Positions 3 through 26,561 of a stretch of 45,611 nucleotides of DNA are shown here, one piece after another. The stretch is from Candidatus Poribacteria bacterium. Lineage in GTDB: Bacteria > Poribacteria > WGA-4E > WGA-3G. The first letter of the stretch is position 1. Each line of letters begins with the position of its first letter. Both the position numbers and the translations under genes were made by a program. The stretch spans positions 1 to 45,611 of the forward strand of contig JAPPFM010000008.1 of NCBI GenBank assembly GCA_028821605.1, written 5' to 3'. The notes beneath the pieces are model-generated. The model saw nothing but the letters and a program-made list of their open reading frames with translations. It searched no databases and was not told where the DNA came from.

Positions 3-77
3 GCGGGAGTAGCTCAGTGGTAGAGCTCCACCTTGCCAAGGTGGAGGTCGCGAGTTCAAATCTCGTCTCCCGCTCCA
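3..77 (+). tRNA. tRNA-Gly (GCC)
   Basis: Complete cloverleaf. The 7-bp acceptor stem is GCGGGAG (3-9) with CTCCCGC (67-73). The anticodon stem CCACC/GGTGG encloses loop TTGCCAA with anticodon GCC. The T-arm is GCGAG-TTCAAAT-CTCGT, with one G-T pair. The discriminator is T74 and CCA is encoded at 75-77. It is the first of three tRNAs within 250 bp. Confidence 0.97.
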
Positions 78-83
78 TCTTTT

Positions 84-158
84 GGTGGCGTAGCCAAGTG
101 GTAAGGCCAGAGTCTGCAAAACTCTTATTCGTCGGTTCGATTCCGACCGCCACCTCCA
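84..158 (+). tRNA. tRNA-Cys (GCA)
   Basis: Acceptor stem GGTGGCG (84-90) pairs with CGCCACC (148-154). The anticodon stem AGAGT/ACTCT encloses loop CTGCAAA, anticodon GCA. The T-arm is GTCGG-TTCGATT-CCGAC. The discriminator is T and CCA is encoded at 156-158. It starts 6 bp after tRNA-Gly, so the two are probably cotranscribed. Confidence 0.97.
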
Positions 159-174
159 TTCTTTTTCTCTAAAC

Positions 175-248
175 GGGCGATTAGCTCAGGTGGCTAGAGC
201 GTTTGCTTGACATGCAAGAGGTCGCTGGTTCAAGTCCAGCATCGCCCA
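175..248 (+). tRNA. tRNA-Val (GAC)
   Basis: Acceptor stem GGGCGAT (175-181) pairs with ATCGCCC (241-247). The anticodon loop TTGACAT gives anticodon GAC. The T-arm is GCTGG-TTCAAGT-CCAGC. The discriminator is A248 and the next bases are TCC, so CCA is not encoded, unlike the two tRNAs before it; it would need CCA-adding enzyme. Confidence 0.95.
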
Positions 249-307: not shown

Positions 308-414
308 GCTTTGTGCATTTTTTAGATTGGTTTGCCCTTTTTCGTGCAATTCAACGACTGTAAAACCAGTTTTATCGGTGTATTGAGCGTGCTTTCGTTG
401 GCATAAAAATTGCA
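308..414 (+). promoter_or_regulatory. Sigma-54 promoter P1 with upstream GTGC sites (class II)
   Basis: The core is TGGCATAAAAATTGC at 399-413. The -24 GG (400-401) and -12 GC (412-413) have the correct 12-bp offset. Upstream lies CCCTTTTTCGTGCAATTCAA, whose GTGC ends at 347, exactly 52 bp before the T of TGGCA; another GTGC ends at 316. The 52-bp spacing recurs at the promoters at 21650 and 23420. The expected transcription start is about 425, 56 bp before the GTG start of the lipoprotein gene. Confidence 0.82.
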
Positions 415-1710: not shown

Positions 1711-3810
1711 TTATTCCCGAAAAAGCGTGTGATGACTTGGAAATGCCTCGTTCTCAGGACAGTACTTTCTAAAGGTTCTGATATCTACGTCTAATGCCGT
1801 AGCTGCTTCAGCATGATCCGTGTATAGGTAGCGTGCCCGGCGATAGACATTCCATTCAATTTGCGAAAAGGTCATCCCACCGAAATAGATACAGCCATGA
1901 TCTCCAGCCAACCGTTTAGATAGCACTTTCAAAGCAAGGTGGACAGCTTGCCTCTGCCCATTCCGACTTTTGTTTCGCCATACTGGACGTGAGAAATTCT
2001 CCAAAATGAAAGGGTCGATAGGTTCTGTAAGAAGTCTTAGGATATCGTCATAAGGAAACCGCTCGAGTCGGCGCAAAGCCGCTATAGATGTACAAAGTGA
2101 ACCATCATCTTCTGTCCGATATGACAACCACCTCTCAAGCTGCGCGAGGGAAATACGCAATTCTCTCGCGGCTTTTTCTCTGTCTTCGCCATAACCTTTT
2201 ACGACTTCGTGTAGCACCGCAGTCAGGCTGCCTTTGAGGGTTCTTCCTTTTATGCTGACTGGCTCAGCTTCTTCTATGGGTTCGGAACTATGCCGAAGAT
2301 TTGATAATTGAGAGATGGCGTCGTCAACCACCCGCCTAATCCAGTCGTCCGAGAAGATCGGAAACTCTAAGTTGGTCGTGTTAAACTCGAGCCTCCAATT
2401 ATCAATTTCGCGTCTGGCACTATTGGCACGGGCGCGTCCATCATTAGAGAACGCTTCCCACCACTCGGCGATTTGACGATCAGTGACACCTGACTCCCCT
2501 TCAGAGAGAAACTGACAAAACTGTCCATCAGAGAAAAACTGACAGAATACCATGACCGGCAAATCAAGTAGGTTCTGATACACCGGTGTTTCCGTAGATC
2601 GTGTTTCTGGTGCCTCCACCTCGGAACTCCCATCTCCATTATACGTCCGAATGGTTTGTGGGAGGTCCCTCGGCATAATTACTTCGCCTTGGGAAGTGAC
2701 TGTCGCGCTTTTCAGGCATTGCTCTAACTCTCGAACGTTACCGGGCCAGTTATACGCTTGGAACAATTCCATCACTTCTTCCGAAATACCGTACAGTGGT
2801 TGACCATTTTCTTCCTCGATACGCTGCAGAAAGTACGCAGCGAGTAACGGGATATCCTCTTTCCGTTCTCGCAACGGAGACAAGGACATTTGATAGCCGC
2901 AGAGACGGTGGAACAAATCCAGCCGGAATTTCCCCTGCTCCACCATTTCCTCCAATCTCTGATTGGTAGTACTGATGATACGCACATCCACGCTACGCAC
3001 CTGAGTGTCGCCCAGCCGCGTGACCTCTCCTGTTTGCAACACATTGAGTAGTTTCATTTGTAATGCTGGTGACATATTACCGACTTCATCAAGAAAAAGG
3101 GTGCCGCCATCCGCCAACTCAAACCGCCCAGGTTGACCGCTTGGTCTTGCATCTGCAAAGGCACCCCTTACATGACCAAACAACTCATTCTCCAAGAGCG
3201 AATCTGGGAGTGCGCCACAATCAACTGTGACAAACTTTTCCCCTGCACGATCACTTTCTTGGTGAATTAAGCGCGCAACCAATCCCTTCCCTGTGCCTGG
3301 TTCACCTTCAAGCAGCACTGAAACGTTAAAGTTGGCTGTGAGTCCAATCCTTCTATTAAGTTCAAACATTACCTCGCTTTCCCCCACGAGAAAAGACTGG
3401 TTCCCAGGCATTTCTTCGTCCGGAATCGAGGCTGGGTCGCTTCGAGCTGATAGCCGGCCAAACGCCCGATCAAGTGCCCTACGGATACCTTCTATATCAG
3501 TGTGTTTAGACAAAACCTCTAATGCGCCCAGACGCATTGCCTTTCTCGCTGTTTGTACCCCCGCTCTAATCACAATTACAATTACCTCTGGGTGTTCCTG
3601 CTTAATTCTCCTCAATGCATCCAAACCACTTATCCCTGACAGTTCCACACTAAGCAAGACCACTTTCAAATTTTCGGATTGGTTAATTTTCTCCAAACCT
3701 TCGTCAATGGTCTCAACGATGATAGGCGAATAGCCCTCAGTTCTTAGGAAATACGCCAAGGCATGAGAACTTTGGTTGTTATCAATGATTAATACTTCTT
3801 TTTTTTCCAT
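1711..3810 (-). CDS. Sigma-54-dependent transcriptional activator with degenerate receiver and long C-terminal region
   Basis: About 699 residues from ATG at 3810; a TTG at 3837 is possible but less likely. Residues 1-120 form a CheY-like receiver (VLIIDNNQ) in which the usual phosphoacceptor Asp position is Ser54 (VVLLSVEL), so phosphorylation is doubtful. Residues 145-380 are a sigma-54 activator AAA+ domain: Walker A GEPGTGKG near 169, Walker B LFLDEV near 237, Arg region FRLDLFHRL, and the sigma-54 contact loop GAFADA where GAFTGA is usual. The roughly 310-residue C terminus is unusual: instead of one short Fis helix-turn-helix it holds two Fis-like segments (near 545-562 and 667-684) separated by unassigned sequence. 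Its own promoter is sigma-54 type with the three-site array found at three other promoters, so autoregulation and control of those genes is inferred. The inducing signal is unknown; no sensor kinase gene is nearby. Confidence 0.92.
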   Translation of the reverse strand: MEKKEVLIIDNNQSSHALAYFLRTEGYSPIIVETIDEGLEKINQSENLKVVLLSVELSGISGLDALRRIKQEHPEVIVIVIRAGVQTARKAMRLGALEVLSKHTDIEGIRRALDRAFGRLSARSDPASIPDEEMPGNQSFLVGESEVMFELNRRIGLTANFNVSVLLEGEPGTGKGLVARLIHQESDRAGEKFVTVDCGALPDSLLENELFGHVRGAFADARPSGQPGRFELADGGTLFLDEVGNMSPALQMKLLNVLQTGEVTRLGDTQVRSVDVRIISTTNQRLEEMVEQGKFRLDLFHRLCGYQMSLSPLRERKEDIPLLAAYFLQRIEEENGQPLYGISEEVMELFQAYNWPGNVRELEQCLKSATVTSQGEVIMPRDLPQTIRTYNGDGSSEVEAPETRSTETPVYQNLLDLPVMVFCQFFSDGQFCQFLSEGESGVTDRQIAEWWEAFSNDGRARANSARREIDNWRLEFNTTNLEFPIFSDDWIRRVVDDAISQLSNLRHSSEPIEEAEPVSIKGRTLKGSLTAVLHEVVKGYGEDREKAARELRISLAQLERWLSYRTEDDGSLCTSIAALRRLERFPYDDILRLLTEPIDPFILENFSRPVWRNKSRNGQRQAVHLALKVLSKRLAGDHGCIYFGGMTFSQIEWNVYRRARYLYTDHAEAATALDVDIRTFRKYCPENEAFPSHHTLFRE

Positions 3811-4001
3811 TACCTTACCTTCTATGTTCACTATCAATATGCGGTCAACTTAAGCTTTTAGCAGATGATAGCACAAGATTCAGTTGTTTCTTCCTATTTA
3901 CAGCAAAATTTTTTGTGCAGGCGGGTGCTTCTACTCATCCCTCTGTGCCAGTTGGTGAACGGGGTAGGAACTCGAATTCCCGTTCAACTAAGTCATAACG
4001 C

Positions 4002-4016
4002 GCAATTTTCATGCCA
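4002..4016 (-). promoter_or_regulatory. Sigma-54 promoter P2 of the activator gene
   Basis: On the minus strand the sequence is TGGCATGAAAATTGC, a near-consensus sigma-54 core with GG and GC at the right spacing. The expected start near 3990 gives a leader of about 180 nt to the activator ATG at 3810. The core is identical to P3 at 4546-4560. Confidence 0.87.
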
Positions 4017-4057
4017 AGCAAATTTCGTCAATATTAAGCACCAAAATAGCAATTCCA

Positions 4058-4450: not shown

Positions 4451-4504
4451 CAAAACCTGTGCGGATTTTTACAAGCCTTCTGCTATTTCTGGCAAAACTT
4501 GTGC
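4451..4504 (+). promoter_or_regulatory. Class I three-site activator array of P3
   Basis: The sites are CAAAACCTGTGC (4451-4462), CAAGCCTTCTGC (4472-4483) and CAAAACTTGTGC (4493-4504), spaced exactly 21 bp. The last base is 42 bp before the T of TGGCA at 4546. Confidence 0.8.
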
Positions 4505-4545
4505 TGGAATCGCCATTGTCTCCCGCAATATTGACGAAATTTGCT

Positions 4546-4560
4546 TGGCATGAAAATTGC
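4546..4560 (+). promoter_or_regulatory. Sigma-54 promoter P3
   Basis: TGGCATGAAAATTGC matches the sigma-54 consensus at the -24 and -12 elements. The expected start is about 4572. No convincing coding sequence follows for more than 800 bp; a 60-codon reading frame at 4700-4882 has no ribosome binding site and cuts across hairpins. The first transcribed part contains the palindrome GTAGGCCTAC (4600-4609) and a perfect 8-bp hairpin TTCTGCAT/ATGCAGAA (4643-4668). Confidence 0.83.
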
Positions 4561-4753
4561 TTCTACATTATTGCGTGTGAGTTGAAGAATAAAAGGCAAG
4601 TAGGCCTACGGAATTAATACTGAATGGGCATAAGGCATATAGTTCTGCATCGCTCACGGCATGCAGAAAATGCGCGGGAAATATTCATGAACCCCTAAAA
4701 TGTGTTGGGTGGCGACTGAAATTCGCACAAAAAATTGGGATGATAAAAAAATG

Positions 4754-4782
4754 TTGTATTTTATTTTAATTCTTGCTATAAT
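4754..4782 (+). promoter_or_regulatory. Sigma-70-type promoter before structured RNA
   Basis: TTGTAT (4754-4759), a 17-bp spacer, and a perfect TATAAT (4777-4782). A start near 4789 would place transcription directly ahead of the first strong hairpin at 4815. The surroundings are AT rich. Confidence 0.6.
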
Positions 4783-4788
4783 CCGTTT

Positions 4789-5084
4789 TGGCATCCGTAA
4801 AATCCTTTACAGGTGGTTCGGCGAGAGTGTCAGTCTCCCGAACCGCGGCACTGCCAAGCGTAGATTGCCAGTGCGTGTTTAAGTATATCATACATCGTAA
4901 GTAGTATGCTATGATATTTTAAGCAGCATCGTAATTTTACTTGATTTTTTTCGAAAAATTTTGTATCGTTACGAATGGACGTTGGAGGCGGATTGCCAGG
5001 GTAGTTCCCACTACCTCCCGTCTCCACCCAACTGGCAATTGGGTATGCGTCTAAGAATACAACGTCCAAATACCCCGATTTTTT
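4789..5084 (+). ncRNA. Candidate structured non-coding RNA, family not recognised
   Basis: About 300 nt with no supported reading frame but strong base pairing. Hairpin 1: GGTTCGG/CCGAACC (4815-4821, 4838-4844) extended by GAGA/TCTC. Hairpin 2: GCACTG/CAGTGC (4848-4853, 4869-4874) plus CAA/TTG. Hairpin 3: ATATCATA/TATGATAT (4885-4892, 4910-4917). The 3' part has crossing helices: TGGACGTTG/CAACGTCCA (4976-4984, 5060-5068), GGAGGCGG/CCGTCTCC (4984-4991, 5018-5025, one G-U), ATTGCCAG/CTGGCAAT (4992-4999, 5032-5039), GGTAG/CTACC (5000-5004, 5011-5015) and GGGTAT/ATACCC (5041-5046, 5070-5075) before six Ts. The order of arms implies a pseudoknot or mutually exclusive folds. I find no match from memory to tmRNA, RNase P, SRP or 6S RNA landmarks. 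It could be made from the internal sigma-70 promoter, from P3, or both. Confidence 0.6.
5041..5084 (+). terminator. Putative terminator of the structured RNA
   Basis: GGGTAT (5041-5046) pairs with ATACCC (5070-5075), followed by CGA and six Ts (5079-5084). The loop contains CAACGTCCA, which can instead pair with 4976-4984, so formation of this hairpin may compete with another helix. Confidence 0.5.
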
Positions 5085-5131
5085 GATTCACTGATGGAGG
5101 TGGTTCTACCTTCGTTAGTTTGGTTTCTTTG

Positions 5132-5185: not shown

Positions 5186-5226
5186 TGCAATCGCCATTTT
5201 TCCGCCTAATATTGACAAAATTTGCT

Positions 5227-5241
5227 TGGCATGAATCTTGC
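5227..5241 (+). promoter_or_regulatory. Sigma-54 promoter P4 of the beta-barrel gene
   Basis: TGGCATGAATCTTGC has both sigma-54 elements. The predicted start near 5253 leaves a leader of about 190 nt before the ATG at 5443. I see no further structure in the leader that I would defend. Confidence 0.85.
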
Positions 5242-5442: not shown

Positions 5443-5991
5443 ATGAAAGTTTTAGTCATTTTACTACTCGTTTTGCTCTGTTTGTTACCAGTACCGCAAA
5501 GTTTGGCACAGCAGTCCAACTTCTTTGACAAATTTATGGATGAAAAACGGAAAGGATTGTGGGCGGGGGCAGAATTGGGGTATGCGGTAGGAGCAGTGCA
5601 ATATAGTATCCCTCTTTTGGATTTTGAAGATACATCTGAGATACAAGGGACACTCATACGAGGCAAGTTAGGGTATGCGCCTTCAGAAAATCTGGTACCC
5701 TACATCGCAGGCGGCACAGATGCACTGGATTTTGGGGCGATGGTGTTTCTCCCGAATATCCGCCCAGGTTTTTATCTCGACGGTAGCTTTGGATCCTATG
5801 ACTTAGACCTTGAAGAATATGATAGTAATTTTTATGGCCTCCGCTTCTGTGGTGGTTATGAATTTCAGCCACACTGGAGCATTGAAGCTGGAATGCGTTA
5901 TATCTGGGGTTCAGCATCCATACTGGGCGAAATACGCACTGATGTGTCAGCAAGAGTATTCTTTATCTCTATTAATTACTTAGCCTACTAA
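5443..5991 (+). CDS. Predicted outer-membrane beta-barrel protein
   Basis: 182 residues. AAAGGAGG lies just upstream of the ATG. The N terminus is a textbook signal peptide (Lys, then VILLLVLLCLLPVP, then a LAQQS cleavage region). The mature protein alternates hydrophobic and polar residues with many Gly and aromatic positions (WAGAELGYAVGAVQYSIPLL, LRFCGGYEFQPHWSIEAGMR) and ends in an aromatic residue (FFISINYLAY), as small eight-stranded outer-membrane barrels do. No enzyme motif is visible. Because it is preceded by a sigma-54 promoter with the full three-site array, it is probably induced by the activator encoded at 1711-3810. The specific family is not recognised; an OmpW- or OmpA-barrel-like role is only one possibility. 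Confidence 0.78.
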   Translation: MKVLVILLLVLLCLLPVPQSLAQQSNFFDKFMDEKRKGLWAGAELGYAVGAVQYSIPLLDFEDTSEIQGTLIRGKLGYAPSENLVPYIAGGTDALDFGAMVFLPNIRPGFYLDGSFGSYDLDLEEYDSNFYGLRFCGGYEFQPHWSIEAGMRYIWGSASILGEIRTDVSARVFFISINYLAY

Positions 5992-11914: not shown

Positions 11915-11955
11915 TGGAATCTCCTATTTTCGCCCAATAATTCGCAAAATTCGCT

Positions 11956-11970
11956 TGGCACGCATCTTGC
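11956..11970 (+). promoter_or_regulatory. Sigma-54 promoter P5
   Basis: TGGCACGCATCTTGC is close to the full sigma-54 consensus. The predicted start is about 11982, at the very edge of the inverted-repeat element that fills the leader of the genes at 12136 and 12338. Confidence 0.87.
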
Positions 11971-21553: not shown

Positions 21554-21664
21554 CCCTTTTTGTATAGTTTAAAAATACGATTGTTCATTTTTTGTGCAGC
21601 TTGCCTCGTTGAATCTACACATTTCCCGCGAATTCGGCGTATTCAACATTGGCACGAAAATTGC
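21554..21664 (+). promoter_or_regulatory. Sigma-54 promoter P6 with class II upstream sites
   Basis: The core TGGCACGAAAATTGC is at 21650-21664. Upstream TTTTTTGTGC has GTGC ending at 21598, exactly 52 bp before the T of TGGCA, as at P1 and P7. A related CCCCTTTTTGTAT lies at 21556-21568. The expected start near 21676 is 35 bp before the ATG at 21711. The stretch 21435-21553 holds no gene or structure I can name. Confidence 0.82.
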
Positions 21665-21710: not shown

Positions 21711-23176
21711 ATGAACAGAAAAGTAACCTCGCATGCTTTAATGATTGCATTGATGTGTCACGTTATTATTGCTTTTGTTGTCGGAATCTATCTGCTCGGA
21801 TAGACGAGAGAGTTTAAGGATCTGATAGGTATCGAAATCCTGGAACTGAAGGAACGACCGACACCTAAGGTGGCGACGTATGTCGTGAAACCTTCCATTA
21901 AACCGAGTGTTCCGATGCAAAGCACTGTCATTGAACAGATTCAGATGCAGCCCCGTGTGGAGACGATACCTCCTCGCGAGTCTCGGTTCCAGCCACAGAC
22001 AGGCCTGAAATTTTCGAGCCAAACCGTTAAAGTAAAGCCCCAACAGATCCGAACGTCCCGAAAGTAAACACCTTGAATCCGAGGGTGCCAGCAAGTGTGA
22101 TACATGGTGAGGTGTTGGTGTTAGATGCTCCCGATGCTTTGGAATTCTCTGCGCCTGTGGTAGCGGCCCCTTCCGCTCGAATGAGAAACGTCAGCCGTGG
22201 TATTGCGGAGCAGTTGAAAGTCACCCTTGAACGTCCGCCGGGTCTTGCAATGGTTGAGAACGTCGGTGCGGCACGCGATGCGCTTGACGATGTCGTCAAA
22301 AACGTTACGCTTTCCAAGTATACTGTCCCACCGCTACCTAAGGGGGAACCGGGGGGACGCGTGATTGGCAAGGGCAGAGACATCCAAGGCGTATTTCGTT
22401 TTACACGCATTCGACACACTCTCTCTGACTGGTGGGCTGATGCTTCTGCGCTCAACTCATTGACGCAATGGCTCAATGAACGCACCCAAATTAAAGCCGA
22501 TATGAACGTTGAAGGCGGCGCATTGAAACTCACCGATGCCAGTCTCTTCAAAACGCCCCTCGTTTTTATGACGGGACATGATCCGGCAGTTGTCCGATCT
22601 CGTGATCTCCACCGAAAAAATTATGGTGCTGGTAGAATAGATGGTCGTTTCTCTGACAACGAAGCAGCAGGGCTGCGCCGCTATCTCGTCGAAAAAGGTG
22701 GGCTCCTCGTCTTTGACGACTGCGGTGTAGAGGCTCCTGCACAGGCGATGACGCGCCTCTTCCTGGCGCAGATGCGATACATTATGCCTGAATATCACAT
22801 TGGGCGGATTTCCAACGATCACGAAGTCTATAATAACTTCTATGGGATGGGTGGACCTCCGATCGGATATGACATCTTCTGGTGGGGCACACGTCCGCCG
22901 AAACGGAACTACCTCGAAGGTATCTCTATCGCTGGCAAACTCTCCGTTATCGTTATCCGTCGTGACTACATGTGCTCAATGGAGTCTATCAGTCTTCCGG
23001 TACGTAGTGTTCACTATTCACCTGGTGTCTTTCGTTTCATGACGAACGTTGTCGTATACGCGTTGACACACGGCGCGATTTCCGACTACTCCGGTTATGT
23101 CCCGGAGGATTTATTACGTGAAAAGAAGCTCCCGACGCGTCCACCTGCCGCCGCGAGGGTTGGTGGTTTTGAGTAG
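21711..23176 (+). pseudogene. First TonB-anchored DUF4159 paralog, disrupted by a nonsense codon and a frameshift
   Basis: Clearly homologous along its whole length to the intact genes at 23475 and 25095. The frame opens MNRKVTSHALMIALMCHVII but hits TAG at 21801-21803, where the third copy has CAG in QTERFKDL. The same frame then continues open as TREFKDLIGIEILELKERPT until about 22040, where CCCC replaces the five Cs needed to encode KPPTDPN; the remainder, from NPRVPASVIHGEVLV to the end, is one frame over and open to 23176. The Ser of the SxxxH anchor motif is also Ala here. Its sigma-54 promoter and ribosome binding site look intact. Recent pseudogene is the simplest reading; an assembly error could explain the C-run but less easily the TAG. 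Confidence 0.8.
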
Positions 23177-23224
23177 CATCTTTATCTTCCAGCGCGTCCA
23201 CGTTTTCATTGAAGGAACTAAAAA

Positions 23225-23254
23225 GTAGGTTGGGTTGAACGCAGTGAACCCAAC
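23225..23254 (+). repeat. GTAG-headed palindrome (REP-like)
   Basis: GTAG (23225-23228) is followed by GTTGGGTT (23229-23236) and its inverted copy AACCCAAC (23247-23254) with a 10-nt loop. It lies 48 bp after the disrupted paralog and may also act as a weak transcription barrier. Confidence 0.65.
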
Positions 23255-23333
23255 TTATGTTCTAATTTTTCTCCCCGCACTGCCCTTGTAATTCCAAGTT
23301 TTACCGTATTCACCATAGTTCCACCGAAGGCAG

Positions 23334-23434
23334 CCCTTTTTTGTGCAGCCTGATGCCCCTTTCCGTGCAATTTAACCCGTTTAAGCCACGAATTACCTCA
23401 TATCCCGCATTGTTTGCATTGGCACAGAAATTGC
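23334..23434 (+). promoter_or_regulatory. Sigma-54 promoter P7 with class II upstream sites
   Basis: The core TGGCACAGAAATTGC is at 23420-23434. Upstream are CCCTTTTTTGTGC (23334-23346) and CCCTTTCCGTGCAATTTAAC (23357-23376); the second GTGC ends at 23368, 52 bp before TGGCA as at P1 and P6. The start near 23446 lies 29 bp before ATG 23475, whose ribosome binding site is TGGAGGT. Confidence 0.83.
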
Positions 23435-23474
23435 ATTTACCTCTAACAACAATTATTTTTGGAGGTAATGACGA

Positions 23475-24950
23475 ATGCGTACGAAAAGAACCTCAGGTGC
23501 CTTGTTGACTTCTTTGGGACTTCACCTTGTGTTAGCGTTTGTTGCTGGTCTTTATCTGATTGCTCAAACGCCTCATTTCCAAGAATTCATAGGTGTTGAA
23601 GTCCTCAAACAGCAAGCACCACCGAAACCTACGGTGCGGAAACTTATTGTGAGATCTTTTACTAAGCCGACTGTTCCGACGCAAAAGGCAATTGTTGTTG
23701 AACAGGTGCCAGTGAAACCCCGTGTAACAACCGTCTTCGGTGATAAGGACTTTTTCCGACCCCAGACAGTGCTTGGGGTTTCAAATCAGACGGTCAAAGT
23801 CGAAGCACCAATTAATCCAAATGTGCCGAAAGCGGTCGCCCCGAATGCGTCAGTCCCACCAACTGTAACACATACAGATGTTCCAGTTTCAAACGCTCCC
23901 GATGCCTTGGCGTTCTTTGCTCCTGTGGCAAGTGTCCCTACTGGACCGGCTAATATTGGTCGGGGTGTTGCTGGCACTGCAGTTCAGGTAAAGATTGCTT
24001 TTGAGCATCCACCTGGACTTGCGATGGTTGAATATGTTGGTGCCGTAAATAGCAGTATTGATCATGTTAATAGAAGAATCAATCTTGGTTCTGACGAAGT
24101 GCCACCTGCTCCCAGGGGTGAGCCGCATGGACACGTTATCGGAAGAGGGAAAGACATCCGTGGTGTATTCCGTTTCACACGGGTCAAACATAGTCTCTCT
24201 GACTGGTGGGCGGATGCTTCTTCCTTGAACGCATTGACGAAGTGGCTCAACGAGCGAACGAAAATCAAAACCGACATGAATGTTGAAGGTGGCGCAGTGA
24301 AACTCACCGATGCCAACCTCTTCAAAATGCCGCTCGCCTTTATGACAGGACATGATCCAGCACTTGTCCGTTCTCGGAACCTACTTGGACGGCAATATGG
24401 TGGTGGTAAACTGGATGGCCGTCTCAGTGAGACTGAGGCTGCGGGTCTGCGTCGGTACCTTGTTGAGAAAGGTGGATTCCTTGTCTTTGATGACTGTGGT
24501 GTGAACGCACCGGCACAGGGGATGGTTCGTCTGTTTCTCGCACAGATGCGTTATGTGATGCCTGAGCATCAGGTTGAGCGGATCCGGAATGATCACGAAG
24601 TTTACAACAACTTCTATGAAATGGGGGGTCCTCCTGTCGGCTTCGACATCTTTTGGTGGGGCACACGTCCACCGAAACGGAATTATCTTGAAGGTATCTC
24701 TGTTGGGGACAAGTTATCTGTTATTGTTGTCCGTCGCGACTATATGTGCTCGATGGAAGCAGTGAGTCTCCCGACGCGTCCTGTTCACTATTCACCGGGT
24801 GTGTATCGTTTCATGACGAATGTTGTGGTGTATGCGTTGACACATGGTCGGATTTCTGATTACTCTGGTTATGTGCCGGAGAATAAGTTAGCGAAGACAG
24901 AACTCCCGACACGCGCCCCTCAAGCCGCAAGAGTAGGTAATTTTGAATAG
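23475..24950 (+). CDS. TonB-like N-terminal anchor fused to a DUF4159 domain (second paralog)
   Basis: 491 residues. Residues 7-29 form one membrane helix (LLTSLGLHLVLAFVAGLYLI) containing Ser-x3-His, the signature by which TonB-family helices engage ExbB/ExbD-type motors. A Pro/Val-rich periplasmic stretch follows to about residue 150 (PTVPTQKAIVVEQVPVKP). Residues 250-490 match DUF4159 proteins: FMTGHDPALVRSRN, RRYLVEKGGFLVFDDCG and DIFWWGTRPPKRNYLEG, ending with NVVVYALTHGRISDYSGYVP. DUF4159 is uncharacterised and found in periplasm-facing proteins next to MoxR/VWA systems; a glutamine-amidotransferase-like fold is often suggested. No ExbB/ExbD gene is in the window. The gene has its own sigma-54 promoter. 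Confidence 0.83.
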   Translation: MRTKRTSGALLTSLGLHLVLAFVAGLYLIAQTPHFQEFIGVEVLKQQAPPKPTVRKLIVRSFTKPTVPTQKAIVVEQVPVKPRVTTVFGDKDFFRPQTVLGVSNQTVKVEAPINPNVPKAVAPNASVPPTVTHTDVPVSNAPDALAFFAPVASVPTGPANIGRGVAGTAVQVKIAFEHPPGLAMVEYVGAVNSSIDHVNRRINLGSDEVPPAPRGEPHGHVIGRGKDIRGVFRFTRVKHSLSDWWADASSLNALTKWLNERTKIKTDMNVEGGAVKLTDANLFKMPLAFMTGHDPALVRSRNLLGRQYGGGKLDGRLSETEAAGLRRYLVEKGGFLVFDDCGVNAPAQGMVRLFLAQMRYVMPEHQVERIRNDHEVYNNFYEMGGPPVGFDIFWWGTRPPKRNYLEGISVGDKLSVIVVRRDYMCSMEAVSLPTRPVHYSPGVYRFMTNVVVYALTHGRISDYSGYVPENKLAKTELPTRAPQAARVGNFE

Positions 24951-24965
24951 CGTTTTGTGTCTAAG

Positions 24966-25030
24966 AGCAGTTAAAAACTGCTTACTGTATCCAAGGTTGT
25001 TCAGTTATCTATCGCTGGTAACTGAACAAC
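24966..25030. repeat. Two adjacent hairpins between second and third DUF4159 paralogs
   Basis: Hairpin A: AGCAGTT/AACTGCT (24966-24972, 24976-24982), a 7-bp stem with an AAA loop. Hairpin B: GTTGTTCAGTTA/TAACTGAACAAC (24996-25007, 25019-25030), a perfect 12-bp stem with an 11-nt loop. Neither is followed by a T-run. They lie just upstream of the decayed promoter at 25042, so either a protein-binding site or a terminator without T-run is possible. Confidence 0.6.
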
Positions 25031-25041
25031 TCTATTAGGAT

Positions 25042-25056
25042 TGGCATCAAAATTAT
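25042..25056 (+). promoter_or_regulatory. Degenerate sigma-54 promoter (P8), probably weak or inactive
   Basis: TGGCATCAAAATTAT has a good -24 half, but the -12 half reads TTAT instead of TTGC. At the position where P6 and P7 carry GTGC (52 bp upstream) it reads GTAT. It therefore looks like a decayed relative of P6/P7. The third paralog may instead depend on read-through from P7. Confidence 0.45.
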
Positions 25057-25094
25057 ATTGGTCGCAATAAGTTTATCTTTTGGGGTGATGAGAA

Positions 25095-26561
25095 ATGCGT
25101 ATGAAAAGAACTTCAGGTGCCCTCATGACTTCCGTGGTTCTCCACCTTGTCATAGCATTTGTTACTGGTATCTATCTTGTCACACAGACCGAACGGTTTA
25201 AAGACTTGATAGGCATTGAAGTGCTCCAACCCGAAGAGGCACCAAAACCTATGATTGGGCGGTCTCTTGTAAAACCCGCTGTTAAGCCGACTGTTCCAAC
25301 ACGAAAAATTGTCATTGAGCAGATTCAGGTGCCACCACGTTTGGATACTGTATTTTTCCATGAGCCGACGTTCCGATCGCAGAAGGTACTTGAGTTTTCA
25401 TACCAAACCGTCAGAGTAAAACCGCCGACGGATCCGAACAGACTGAAATTGGTTACGCCGAACCGGGCAGTGCCAACAGATGTGATACATGCTGATTTGC
25501 TCGTGTCGGATGCGCCAGATGCCTTAGCATTTTCCGCGCCTGTGATAACAGTACCGCCCGCACGAACGAAAGATGTTGTCCGTGGTATCGCAGGACATTT
25601 GAAGCCCGCTCTTGAGCATCCACCGGGACTCTCAATGGTTGATAACGTCGGTGCTGCACGCGATGCGCTCGGCGATGTCGTTGAAAACATCACGCTTTCC
25701 AGTTACGTCGTACCGCCCCTTCCTAAAGGTGAACCGGGTGGACGTGTCATCGGTAGAGGTAAGGACATCCAAGGTGTGTTCCGTTTTGCACGGGTCCGGC
25801 ATGAGCTTTCTGACTGGTGGGCGGATGCTTCTGCACTCAACGCCCTGACGCAATGGCTCAACGAACGCACGAAAATCAAAACCGATATGAACGTTGAGGG
25901 CGGCGCGGTGAAACTCAATGATGCAAACCTCTTCAAAACACCGCTCGCCTTTATGACAGGACATGATCCGGGACTCGTCCGTTCTCGGAAGATGTATGGA
26001 TGGAAGTATGGTACCGGTAGAATAGATGGTCGCCTCAGCGAGTCTGAAGCCGCTGGCATGCGTCGCTATCTCGTTGAGAAAGGCGGATTTCTCGTCTTTG
26101 ACGACTGTGGTGTGAATGCTCCTATGCAGGCAATGGTTCGCCTTTTTCTCTCACAGATGCGTTACGTCATGCCTGAATATCAAGTTGAACGGATCTCCAA
26201 CAACCACGAAATTTACAATAACTTCTATGGGATGGGGGGTCCCCCTGTCGGTTTTGACATCTTCTGGTGGGGCACACGTCCGCCTAAACGGAACTACCTT
26301 GAAGGTATCTCTGTCGGTGAGAAGTTGTCCGTTATTGTTGTCCGTCGCGATTACATGTGCGCGATGGAGACTGTCAGTTATCCGACACGGAGCGTCCACT
26401 ATTCACCAGGAGTCTATCGCTTCATGACGAATGTTGTGGTGTATGCGTTGACACACGGCGCGATTTCCGACTACTCCGGTTATGTACCGGAGGACTTATT
26501 GCTTGATAAGGAACTTCCGACGCGTCCACCTGCGGCTGCGCAGGTTGGCAGTTTTGAATAG
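25095..26561 (+). CDS. TonB-like N-terminal anchor fused to a DUF4159 domain (third paralog)
   Basis: 488 residues; same plan as the gene before it. The membrane helix LMTSVVLHLVIAFVTGIYLV keeps Ser-x3-His. The Pro-rich linker (KPAVKPTVPTRKIVIEQIQV) runs to about residue 150, and the DUF4159 part retains FMTGHDPGLVRSRK, RRYLVEKGGFLVFDDCG, FDIFWWGTRPPKRNYLEG and VVRRDYMCAMETVS. Sequence similarity among the three copies is high in the DUF4159 part and lower in the linker, as expected for a tandem duplication whose linkers diverged. TTTGGGGTGATGAGAA precedes ATG 25095. The end is followed by a sigma-70-type promoter for the next gene. Confidence 0.83.
   Translation: MRMKRTSGALMTSVVLHLVIAFVTGIYLVTQTERFKDLIGIEVLQPEEAPKPMIGRSLVKPAVKPTVPTRKIVIEQIQVPPRLDTVFFHEPTFRSQKVLEFSYQTVRVKPPTDPNRLKLVTPNRAVPTDVIHADLLVSDAPDALAFSAPVITVPPARTKDVVRGIAGHLKPALEHPPGLSMVDNVGAARDALGDVVENITLSSYVVPPLPKGEPGGRVIGRGKDIQGVFRFARVRHELSDWWADASALNALTQWLNERTKIKTDMNVEGGAVKLNDANLFKTPLAFMTGHDPGLVRSRKMYGWKYGTGRIDGRLSESEAAGMRRYLVEKGGFLVFDDCGVNAPMQAMVRLFLSQMRYVMPEYQVERISNNHEIYNNFYGMGGPPVGFDIFWWGTRPPKRNYLEGISVGEKLSVIVVRRDYMCAMETVSYPTRSVHYSPGVYRFMTNVVVYALTHGAISDYSGYVPEDLLLDKELPTRPPAAAQVGSFE

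What the first reader, a model, noticed from the sequence alone, without database searches (positions are those of the whole stretch)
4789..5084. Candidate new structured RNA with pseudoknot-like crossing helices
A 300-nt region without genes has three simple hairpins and then five helices of 5-9 bp, most of them perfect, whose arms cross in order. Examples are GGAGGCGG/CCGTCTCC and ATTGCCAG/CTGGCAAT, interleaved as in a pseudoknot. It begins behind a 17-bp-spaced TTGTAT/TATAAT promoter, ends in a hairpin plus T-run, and lies downstream of a sigma-54 promoter that has no gene. No family known to me fits.
Basis: partly seen in the sequence, partly recalled or inferred. Interest (0 to 1): 0.8.

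Follow-up and report, generated by a model that had tools for sequence, protein, structure and literature searches.

The report
New structured RNA of sponge bacteria
A roughly 300-base stretch between genes of a sponge-dwelling Poribacteria genome encodes a previously undescribed folded RNA, kept in up to five copies per genome and tied to sigma-54-controlled surface-protein genes, so it is probably a new gene-control RNA whose exact job is still unknown.

Summary
Window 4789-5084 is part of a new structured RNA family of Candidatus Poribacteria: 68 model hits in 36 of 85 phylum genomes, two genera of one family, up to five copies per genome, and no Rfam match. On 52 full-length copies, 71 base pairs form in 94.9% of cells. 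Of these, 26 pairs show changes on both sides, and none of 500 shuffles reaches that. The ATTGCCAG/CTGGCAAT helix is not conserved at 4992-4999. The conserved partner is the second ATTGCCAG at 4864-4871: 99% paired, with one exact swap (L151). That makes a long-range pseudoknot between two domains.

Distant copies carry the 3' strand of the closing helix twice, and both strands follow its changes, which suggests alternative pairing.

Most copies lie downstream of a sigma-54 promoter and many lie beside a sigma-54 activator gene. Full-length copies precede a same-strand gene (50/52), enriched for exported proteins. Best reading: a switch-like regulatory RNA cis-linked to sigma-54-controlled surface genes. 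A Qrr-like trans-acting RNA is the main rival. Transcription and function are untested. The window copy lacks a third domain that other copies have.

The parts
4790..5107 (+). the structured RNA as present in this copy; 5' end inferred 7-8 nt after TATAAT; 3' end uncertain (5076 to about 5119)
   Evidence: sharp conservation boundaries over 43 copies; helices counted on 40 and 52 copies
4754..4782 (+). sigma-70-type promoter TTGTAT-17-TATAAT directly in front of the RNA
   Evidence: conserved across copies
4545..4560 (+). sigma-54 promoter TTGGCATGAAAATTGC upstream of the RNA, with no open gene behind it
   Evidence: same arrangement 95-290 nt upstream of the RNA in about 40 of 58 copies
4451..4504 (+). 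likely upstream activator sites CAAAACCTGTGC (4451-4462) and CAAAACTTGTGC (4493-4504)
   Evidence: 13 matches in window against 2.0 expected; repeated array in relatives
4815..4844 (+). helix P2 (4815-4821/4838-4844) plus P2b (4823-4826/4834-4837), domain A
   Evidence: covarying pairs 4826-4834 (A-U/U-A), 4825-4835, 4819-4840; fully re-sequenced in L148 and L151
4848..4874 (+). helix P3 (4848-4853/4869-4874 and 4855-4857/4865-4867) with a centre that never pairs (4854 x 4868, 0 of 52); shares its 3' arm with the long-range helix
4877..4924 (+). helix P3b
   Evidence: 95.6% paired, 3 pairs with double changes
4865..4871 (+). UUGCCAG, 5' arm of the long-range pseudoknot; pairs with the P8 loop CUGGCAA at 5032-5038
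   Evidence: 99.2% paired in 52 copies; C-G to G-C swap in L151, seven U-G
4929..4974 (+). helix P4 with P4b; overlaps a second promoter-like pair TTGATT-17-TATCGT (4941-4969), a strong promoter in copies that lack domain A
   Evidence: 5 of 6 P4 pairs with double changes; 10 of 11 A-less copies score 9 or more with a 17-bp spacer
4976..5068 (+). helix P5 (4976-4983/5061-5068) closing domain B; its 3' strand is duplicated in distant copies
   Evidence: 92% paired; duplication test
   Evidence: 99.8% and 98.3% paired, double changes; GGTGGCGG/CCGCCACC, GGAGGGGG/CCCCCTCC, TGCGGTGG/CCACCGCA in distant copies
5027..5043 (+). hairpin P8 CCCAA-CUGGCAA-UUGGG; the 7-nt loop is the 3' arm of the pseudoknot
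   Evidence: CCCAU/AUGGG in relatives
1711..3837 (-). divergent sigma-54 activator gene (receiver + Sigma54_activat + own C-terminal domain)
   Evidence: Pfam; its C-terminal domain co-occurs with the RNA, Fisher p = 1e-5
5226..5241 (+). second sigma-54 promoter, between the RNA and gene 5443-5991 (outer-membrane beta-barrel)

Best explanation
Shown by sequence: it is a new Poribacteria family of structured non-coding RNA with two linked domains (A 4788-4925, B 4929-5068) joined by a long-range pseudoknot, and a third domain C that this copy has lost. Inferred: it is transcribed from its own sigma-70-type promoter and, when a neighbouring activator is on, also from a sigma-54 promoter just upstream. 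Inferred mechanism: it is a switch-type regulatory RNA cis-linked to the exported or surface-protein gene behind it. Competing pairings (P3 against the pseudoknot, one or other of two P5 3' strands) would let it exist in two folds that change expression of the downstream transcript. The signal that moves the switch is unknown.
For: Structure: 71 pairs, 94.9% of cells paired, 26 pairs with double changes, 0 of 500 shuffles as high; CM search finds copies with wholly different but complementary stems. Pseudoknot: 99.2% paired with one C-G to G-C swap; 7 of 11 copies without domain A have a drifted P8 loop and most A-only copies have a drifted 4865-4871 arm. Alternatives: P5 finds two perfect 3' partners in seven distant copies, 1.75 sites per copy against 0.43 for swapped P5, maximum 1.15 in 2000 shuffles. 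Sigma-54 link: promoter upstream in about 40 of 58 copies, activator co-occurrence, rpoN present. Cis link: the next gene is on the same strand in 50 of 52 full-length copies and has a hydrophobic N-terminus in 33/52 against 39/125 for other genes, p = 1e-4.
Against: No transcript data exist. No terminator is conserved, and a masked ribosome site was not tested for. In about eight loci, the window included, a second sigma-54 promoter lies between RNA and gene. Most B-only copies lie between convergent genes, where a leader makes no sense; these may be relics. Downstream genes are diverse. My tree-based null gave only one individually significant pair in the 40 closest copies. The pseudoknot rests on one full double change. 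The gene and ORF calls are heuristic.
Confidence: 0.45

Rival explanations
1. A discrete trans-acting regulatory RNA of a sigma-54 circuit, placed like Vibrio Qrr: the activator switches on a divergent, multi-copy RNA, which acts on mRNAs elsewhere.
For: Own promoter; sigma-54 promoter and activator sites between divergent activator gene and RNA; up to five paralogous copies per genome; the window also carries other sigma-54 promoters in front of genes, so the RNA looks like the non-coding member of a regulon; Hfq-fold domains exist in the genome. qrr1 lies 151 bp upstream of luxO in opposite orientation and needs LuxO-P and sigma-54 (PMC8043402).
Against: Near-perfect co-orientation with the next gene (50/52) is unexplained; the exact antisense of the conserved 5' end (TTTACGGATGCC) occurs only at the RNA copies and one site that reads in the RNA's own sense; far more structured than Qrr-type RNAs; the sigma-54 start would add 80-270 nt of leader.
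Confidence: 0.3
2. A large ornate RNA that works as a particle, alone or with a protein, possibly as a homo-oligomer in which the P8 loop (CUGGCAA) kisses UUGCCAG of another molecule.
For: Size, three domains, invariant loop; base complementarity cannot tell intra- from intermolecular pairing. GOLLD, ROOL and OLE form homo-oligomers with kissing loops and covarying intermolecular contacts (PMC12286853).
Against: Patchy presence and association with sigma-54 and surface genes point to regulation; no constant protein partner next to all copies.
Confidence: 0.13
3. A dispersed repeat or mobile element whose structure is incidental.
For: Multi-copy, dispersed, patchy; a copy at G000:C58 sits between unrelated genes without sigma-54 promoter.
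Against: No transposase shared by the loci, no conserved terminal repeats seen, compensatory changes in all helices, G-U pairs tolerated in stems, same-strand placement before genes.
Confidence: 0.07
4. The inverted repeats are DNA operator sites rather than RNA.
For: P4 overlaps a promoter in distant copies.
Against: Many G-U/U-G pairs in helices, nested multi-helix architecture, 290 nt span, strand-specific promoter.
Confidence: 0.03

Closest known systems
Vibrio Qrr1-5 small RNAs (LuxO/sigma-54)
   Same: several paralogous RNAs per genome; sigma-54 promoter with activator sites; one copy divergent from its NtrC-type activator gene (PMC8043402)
   Different: this RNA is about three times longer (Qrr length from general knowledge), multi-domain with a pseudoknot, has its own sigma-70-type promoter, lies before same-strand surface genes, and shares no sequence family (no Rfam match)
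Riboswitch or attenuator leaders
   Same: conserved structured RNA upstream of same-strand genes, with mutually exclusive helices
   Different: no conserved terminator, diverse genes behind it, ligand unknown
Ornate large bacterial RNAs (OLE, ROOL, GOLLD)
   Same: narrow lineage, large ornate fold, loop able to kiss
   Different: smaller, different sequence and structure, sigma-54 linkage; no Rfam match

Membership tests
any Rfam 15 family | covariance-model score at or above the gathering cut-off | tested here: not met
   only tRNAs in the window; best sub-threshold 13.2 bits; distant copies none at E up to 3
Qrr-type sigma-54 sRNA | sigma-54 promoter with activator sites upstream | tested here: met
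Qrr-type sigma-54 sRNA | sequence/structure of the Qrr family | tested here: not met
   no Rfam match at permissive threshold
Qrr-type sigma-54 sRNA | base-pairs with target mRNAs in trans | not testable with these tools
   exact antisense of the 5' end not found as a target site, but partial pairing was not excluded
riboswitch/attenuator leader | lies 5' of a same-strand gene | tested here: met
   50 of 52 full-length copies
riboswitch/attenuator leader | mutually exclusive conserved helices | tested here: inconclusive
   P3 and the pseudoknot share 4865-4871 and both are conserved; doubled P5 partner in distant copies; alternatives not probed
riboswitch/attenuator leader | expression platform (conserved terminator or masked ribosome site) | tested here: not met
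   terminator-like hairpin in 10/68 copies against 16/340 control; ribosome-site masking was not tested
riboswitch/attenuator leader | ligand binding | not testable with these tools
   needs in-line probing
ornate large RNAs (OLE/ROOL/GOLLD) | homologous sequence and fold | tested here: not met
   no Rfam match
mobile repeat | terminal repeats, target duplications or shared transposase | tested here: inconclusive
   no shared transposase among neighbours; target duplications not tested systematically

The most novel reading that the evidence does not exclude
A new class of switch RNA built into sigma-54/activator circuits of sponge symbionts. Two domains linked by a loop-to-strand pseudoknot, and one strand (P5) that can choose between two covarying partners, set the output of surface-protein genes.
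Probability: 0.3. Interest if true: 0.82.

Novelty: new variant of a known kind. Interest (0 to 1): 0.66.

Why it matters
Poribacteria are uncultured sponge symbionts, and the searches made here found no paper on non-coding RNA in them. A multi-copy, covarying, pseudoknotted RNA wired to sigma-54 activators and to genes for secreted WD40, cohesin/dockerin and barrel proteins would be a handle on how these symbionts control their surface. The three-strand covariation gives a clear, testable case of a natural RNA strand-exchange switch.

Tried and rejected
Helix GGGUAU/AUACCC as a terminator (seen in the minimum-energy fold): 81% paired, no compensatory change. Alternative GGCA(4790)/UGCC(4852): only one-sided changes in the main group, absent in L148 and L151. 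5' end as antisense seed: no exact target sites. Family-wide intrinsic terminator: 10/68 copies against 16/340 control stretches, so absent from most copies. Protein-coding origin: frames broken. Viral origin: no match in IMG/VR. Literature searches on Poribacteria RNA or sigma-54 returned nothing relevant. A tree-based covariation null of my own design on 40 close copies had little power, one pair at E = 0.017.

Full report
WHAT WAS CLAIMED.

CHECK OF THE SEQUENCE. The promoter (4754-4782), the sigma-54 site (4545-4560) and the helices are where they were described. The strand 4790-5076 folds at -101.6 kcal/mol against -70.4 +/- 4.6 for dinucleotide shuffles (z = -6.7). No Rfam family matches the window or distant copies, even at permissive thresholds.

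HOMOLOGS. A blastn search with 4700-5100 found copies in 25 of the 36 genomes of the genus that the first search held, up to five per genome, and none in 24 genomes outside the genus (26 of 38 genus genomes). Public titles identify the organisms as Candidatus Poribacteria; an exact pattern had no match in viral contigs. Over 43 copies conservation is low up to about 4690 and falls after about 5107. A covariance model of the 3' domain (R1) found 68 hits in 36 of 85 genomes of the phylum, all in two genera of one family.

STRUCTURE. On 40 close copies the 3' domain has 41 pairs, 95.4% paired, 14 with double changes; the 5' domain 34 pairs, 96.1% paired. On 52 full-length copies the whole model (71 pairs, pseudoknot included) has 94.9% of cells paired, 26 pairs with double changes and a covariation score of 0.142 against 0.095 in shuffles, 0 of 500 as high; slid versions drop to 34-50%. 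Distant copies keep stems with entirely different sequence, for example P6 as GGTGGCGG/CCGCCACC or TGCGGTGG/CCACCGCA, and P2 in L148 and L151. My tree-based null on 40 close copies returned only one individually significant pair, 4826-4834, E = 0.017; three further pairs of the proposed stems (4825-4835, 4819-4840, 4930-4973) rank within the top ten, mixed with non-pairing columns.

THE PSEUDOKNOT. ATTGCCAG occurs twice. Pairing of the copy at 4992-4999 with CTGGCAAT is 86% and gains nothing over shuffles. Pairing of 4865-4871 with the P8 loop 5032-5038 is 99.2%, includes seven U-G pairs and one C-G to G-C swap in L151; about 20 of 500 shuffles reach it, because the arms hardly vary. Supporting context: the centre of P3 opposite this arm (4854 x 4868) never pairs in 52 copies, and 7 of 11 copies without domain A, where the partner is missing, have drifted loops such as CUAACAA, CUAUCAA and CUGUCAA, while L149 and L095 keep CUGGCAA. 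Most copies that keep only domain A have lost UUGCCAG. The helix crosses P5 and P8, so it is a true pseudoknot, and it competes with P3.

A DOUBLED STRAND. In L089, L093, L097, L148, L149, L151 and L154 the 5' strand of P5 has two perfect partners of 7-10 bp, although P5 itself is completely different between most of these copies (GAGAGUU, GAGUGUU, UCGGUCAUAA, GAAGCGU, UAAACCA...). Real copies have 1.75 sites against 0.43 for swapped P5 (maximum 1.15 in 2000 shuffles). Three-strand covariation is what a two-state switch would leave. In the close group the first partner is weaker but still 91% paired.

A THIRD DOMAIN. In most copies conservation continues for about 100 nt past 5076 as another stem-rich block (CUGAUG/CAUCAG, GUGCAUC/GAUGCAC, with GUGCUUC/GAAGCAC in L089 and GUGUAUC/GAUACAC in L058). 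The window copy diverges after about 5107, where activator sites and a second sigma-54 promoter (5226-5241) begin, so it appears truncated.

A SECOND PROMOTER. Copies without domain A have a near-consensus promoter in the P4 region (TTGACT-17-TATAAT in L097, L098, L100, L105; 10 of 11 score 9 or more of 12, control 4%), placing a start at P5. In full copies the same spot folds as P4, with G-U pairs and double changes.

SURROUNDINGS. The window has a sigma-54 activator gene (1711-3837, minus strand; receiver, AAA+ and its own C-terminal domain), a sigma-54 promoter for it (4002-4017), the RNA's sigma-54 promoter with activator sites (4451-4560), the RNA, and a second sigma-54 promoter before gene 5443-5991. 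About 40 of 58 relatives have a sigma-54 promoter in the same strand 95-290 nt before the RNA; simple arithmetic gives less than 0.001 expected per locus. The activator's C-terminal domain occurs in 26 of 59 family genomes, 24 of which have the RNA (p = 1e-5), usually next to it. A second subfamily has a different, tandem activator gene. The gene after full-length copies is on the same strand in 50 of 52 (the two exceptions, L086 and L087, have a small same-strand gene of a conserved cluster in between, that fell below the size cut-off) and has a hydrophobic N-terminus in 33/52 against 39/125 of other genes. Products include WD40 proteins, cohesin/dockerin proteins, Omp85, a beta-barrel, and one N6 methylase. 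These loci are related to each other, so the counts are not independent events.

MECHANISM. Shown: a conserved RNA fold, a long-range pairing, an alternative partner strand in distant copies, linkage to sigma-54 promoters and to same-strand exported-protein genes. Inferred: transcription, the switch, and control of the neighbour. I prefer the cis-linked switch (0.45) because co-orientation is almost perfect; the Qrr-like trans model (0.30) explains the activator geometry but not the co-orientation. Against cis: no conserved terminator, second sigma-54 promoters in some loci, and convergent placement of several B-only copies, which may be relics.

COMPARISON. Vibrio qrr1 lies 151 bp upstream of luxO, divergent, and needs LuxO-P and sigma-54 (PMC8043402); the layout is alike, the RNA is not. 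OLE, ROOL and GOLLD are larger ornate RNAs that oligomerise through kissing loops and other contacts (PMC12286853), which is a possibility here, untested. No membership in a known family is claimed.

LIMITS. The genomes are mostly metagenome-assembled; alignments were collected with searches that favour the model; gene calls are longest ORFs; no expression data were available.

Noticed in passing
window 398-413, 4002-4017, 4545-4560, 5226-5241, 11955-11970, 21649-21664, 23419-23434: Seven exact TTGGCAY-N5-TTGC sigma-54 sites in one 45-kb window (about 2 expected with one mismatch allowed), several just before genes for predicted exported proteins: a sigma-54 surface regulon cluster.
   Followed up: partly
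G000:C10:335487-335724 (L055): A copy in the same genome keeps domain A and P4, then runs directly into the start of a signal-peptide gene: domain B is replaced.
   Followed up: partly
L083 and L096 (G002:C57 and C141 contig ends): One copy appears interrupted near P4 by inserted sequence at an assembly break.
   Followed up: no
L085, L086, L087, L088, L089, L092 downstream of the RNA: A subfamily without sigma-54 promoter is followed by related small proteins with a TrmB/EarA-like winged-helix C-terminus, possibly a dedicated partner.
   Followed up: partly
L085:1539-2864: A TnpB/IS605 OrfB-type gene lies upstream of one RNA copy.
   Followed up: no
window 22073-26561: Three tandem paralogous genes sharing a motif like FTRxRHxLSDWWADASxLNxLTxWLNERT.
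   Followed up: no
window 3-248: Three tRNA genes in a row at the window start.
   Followed up: no
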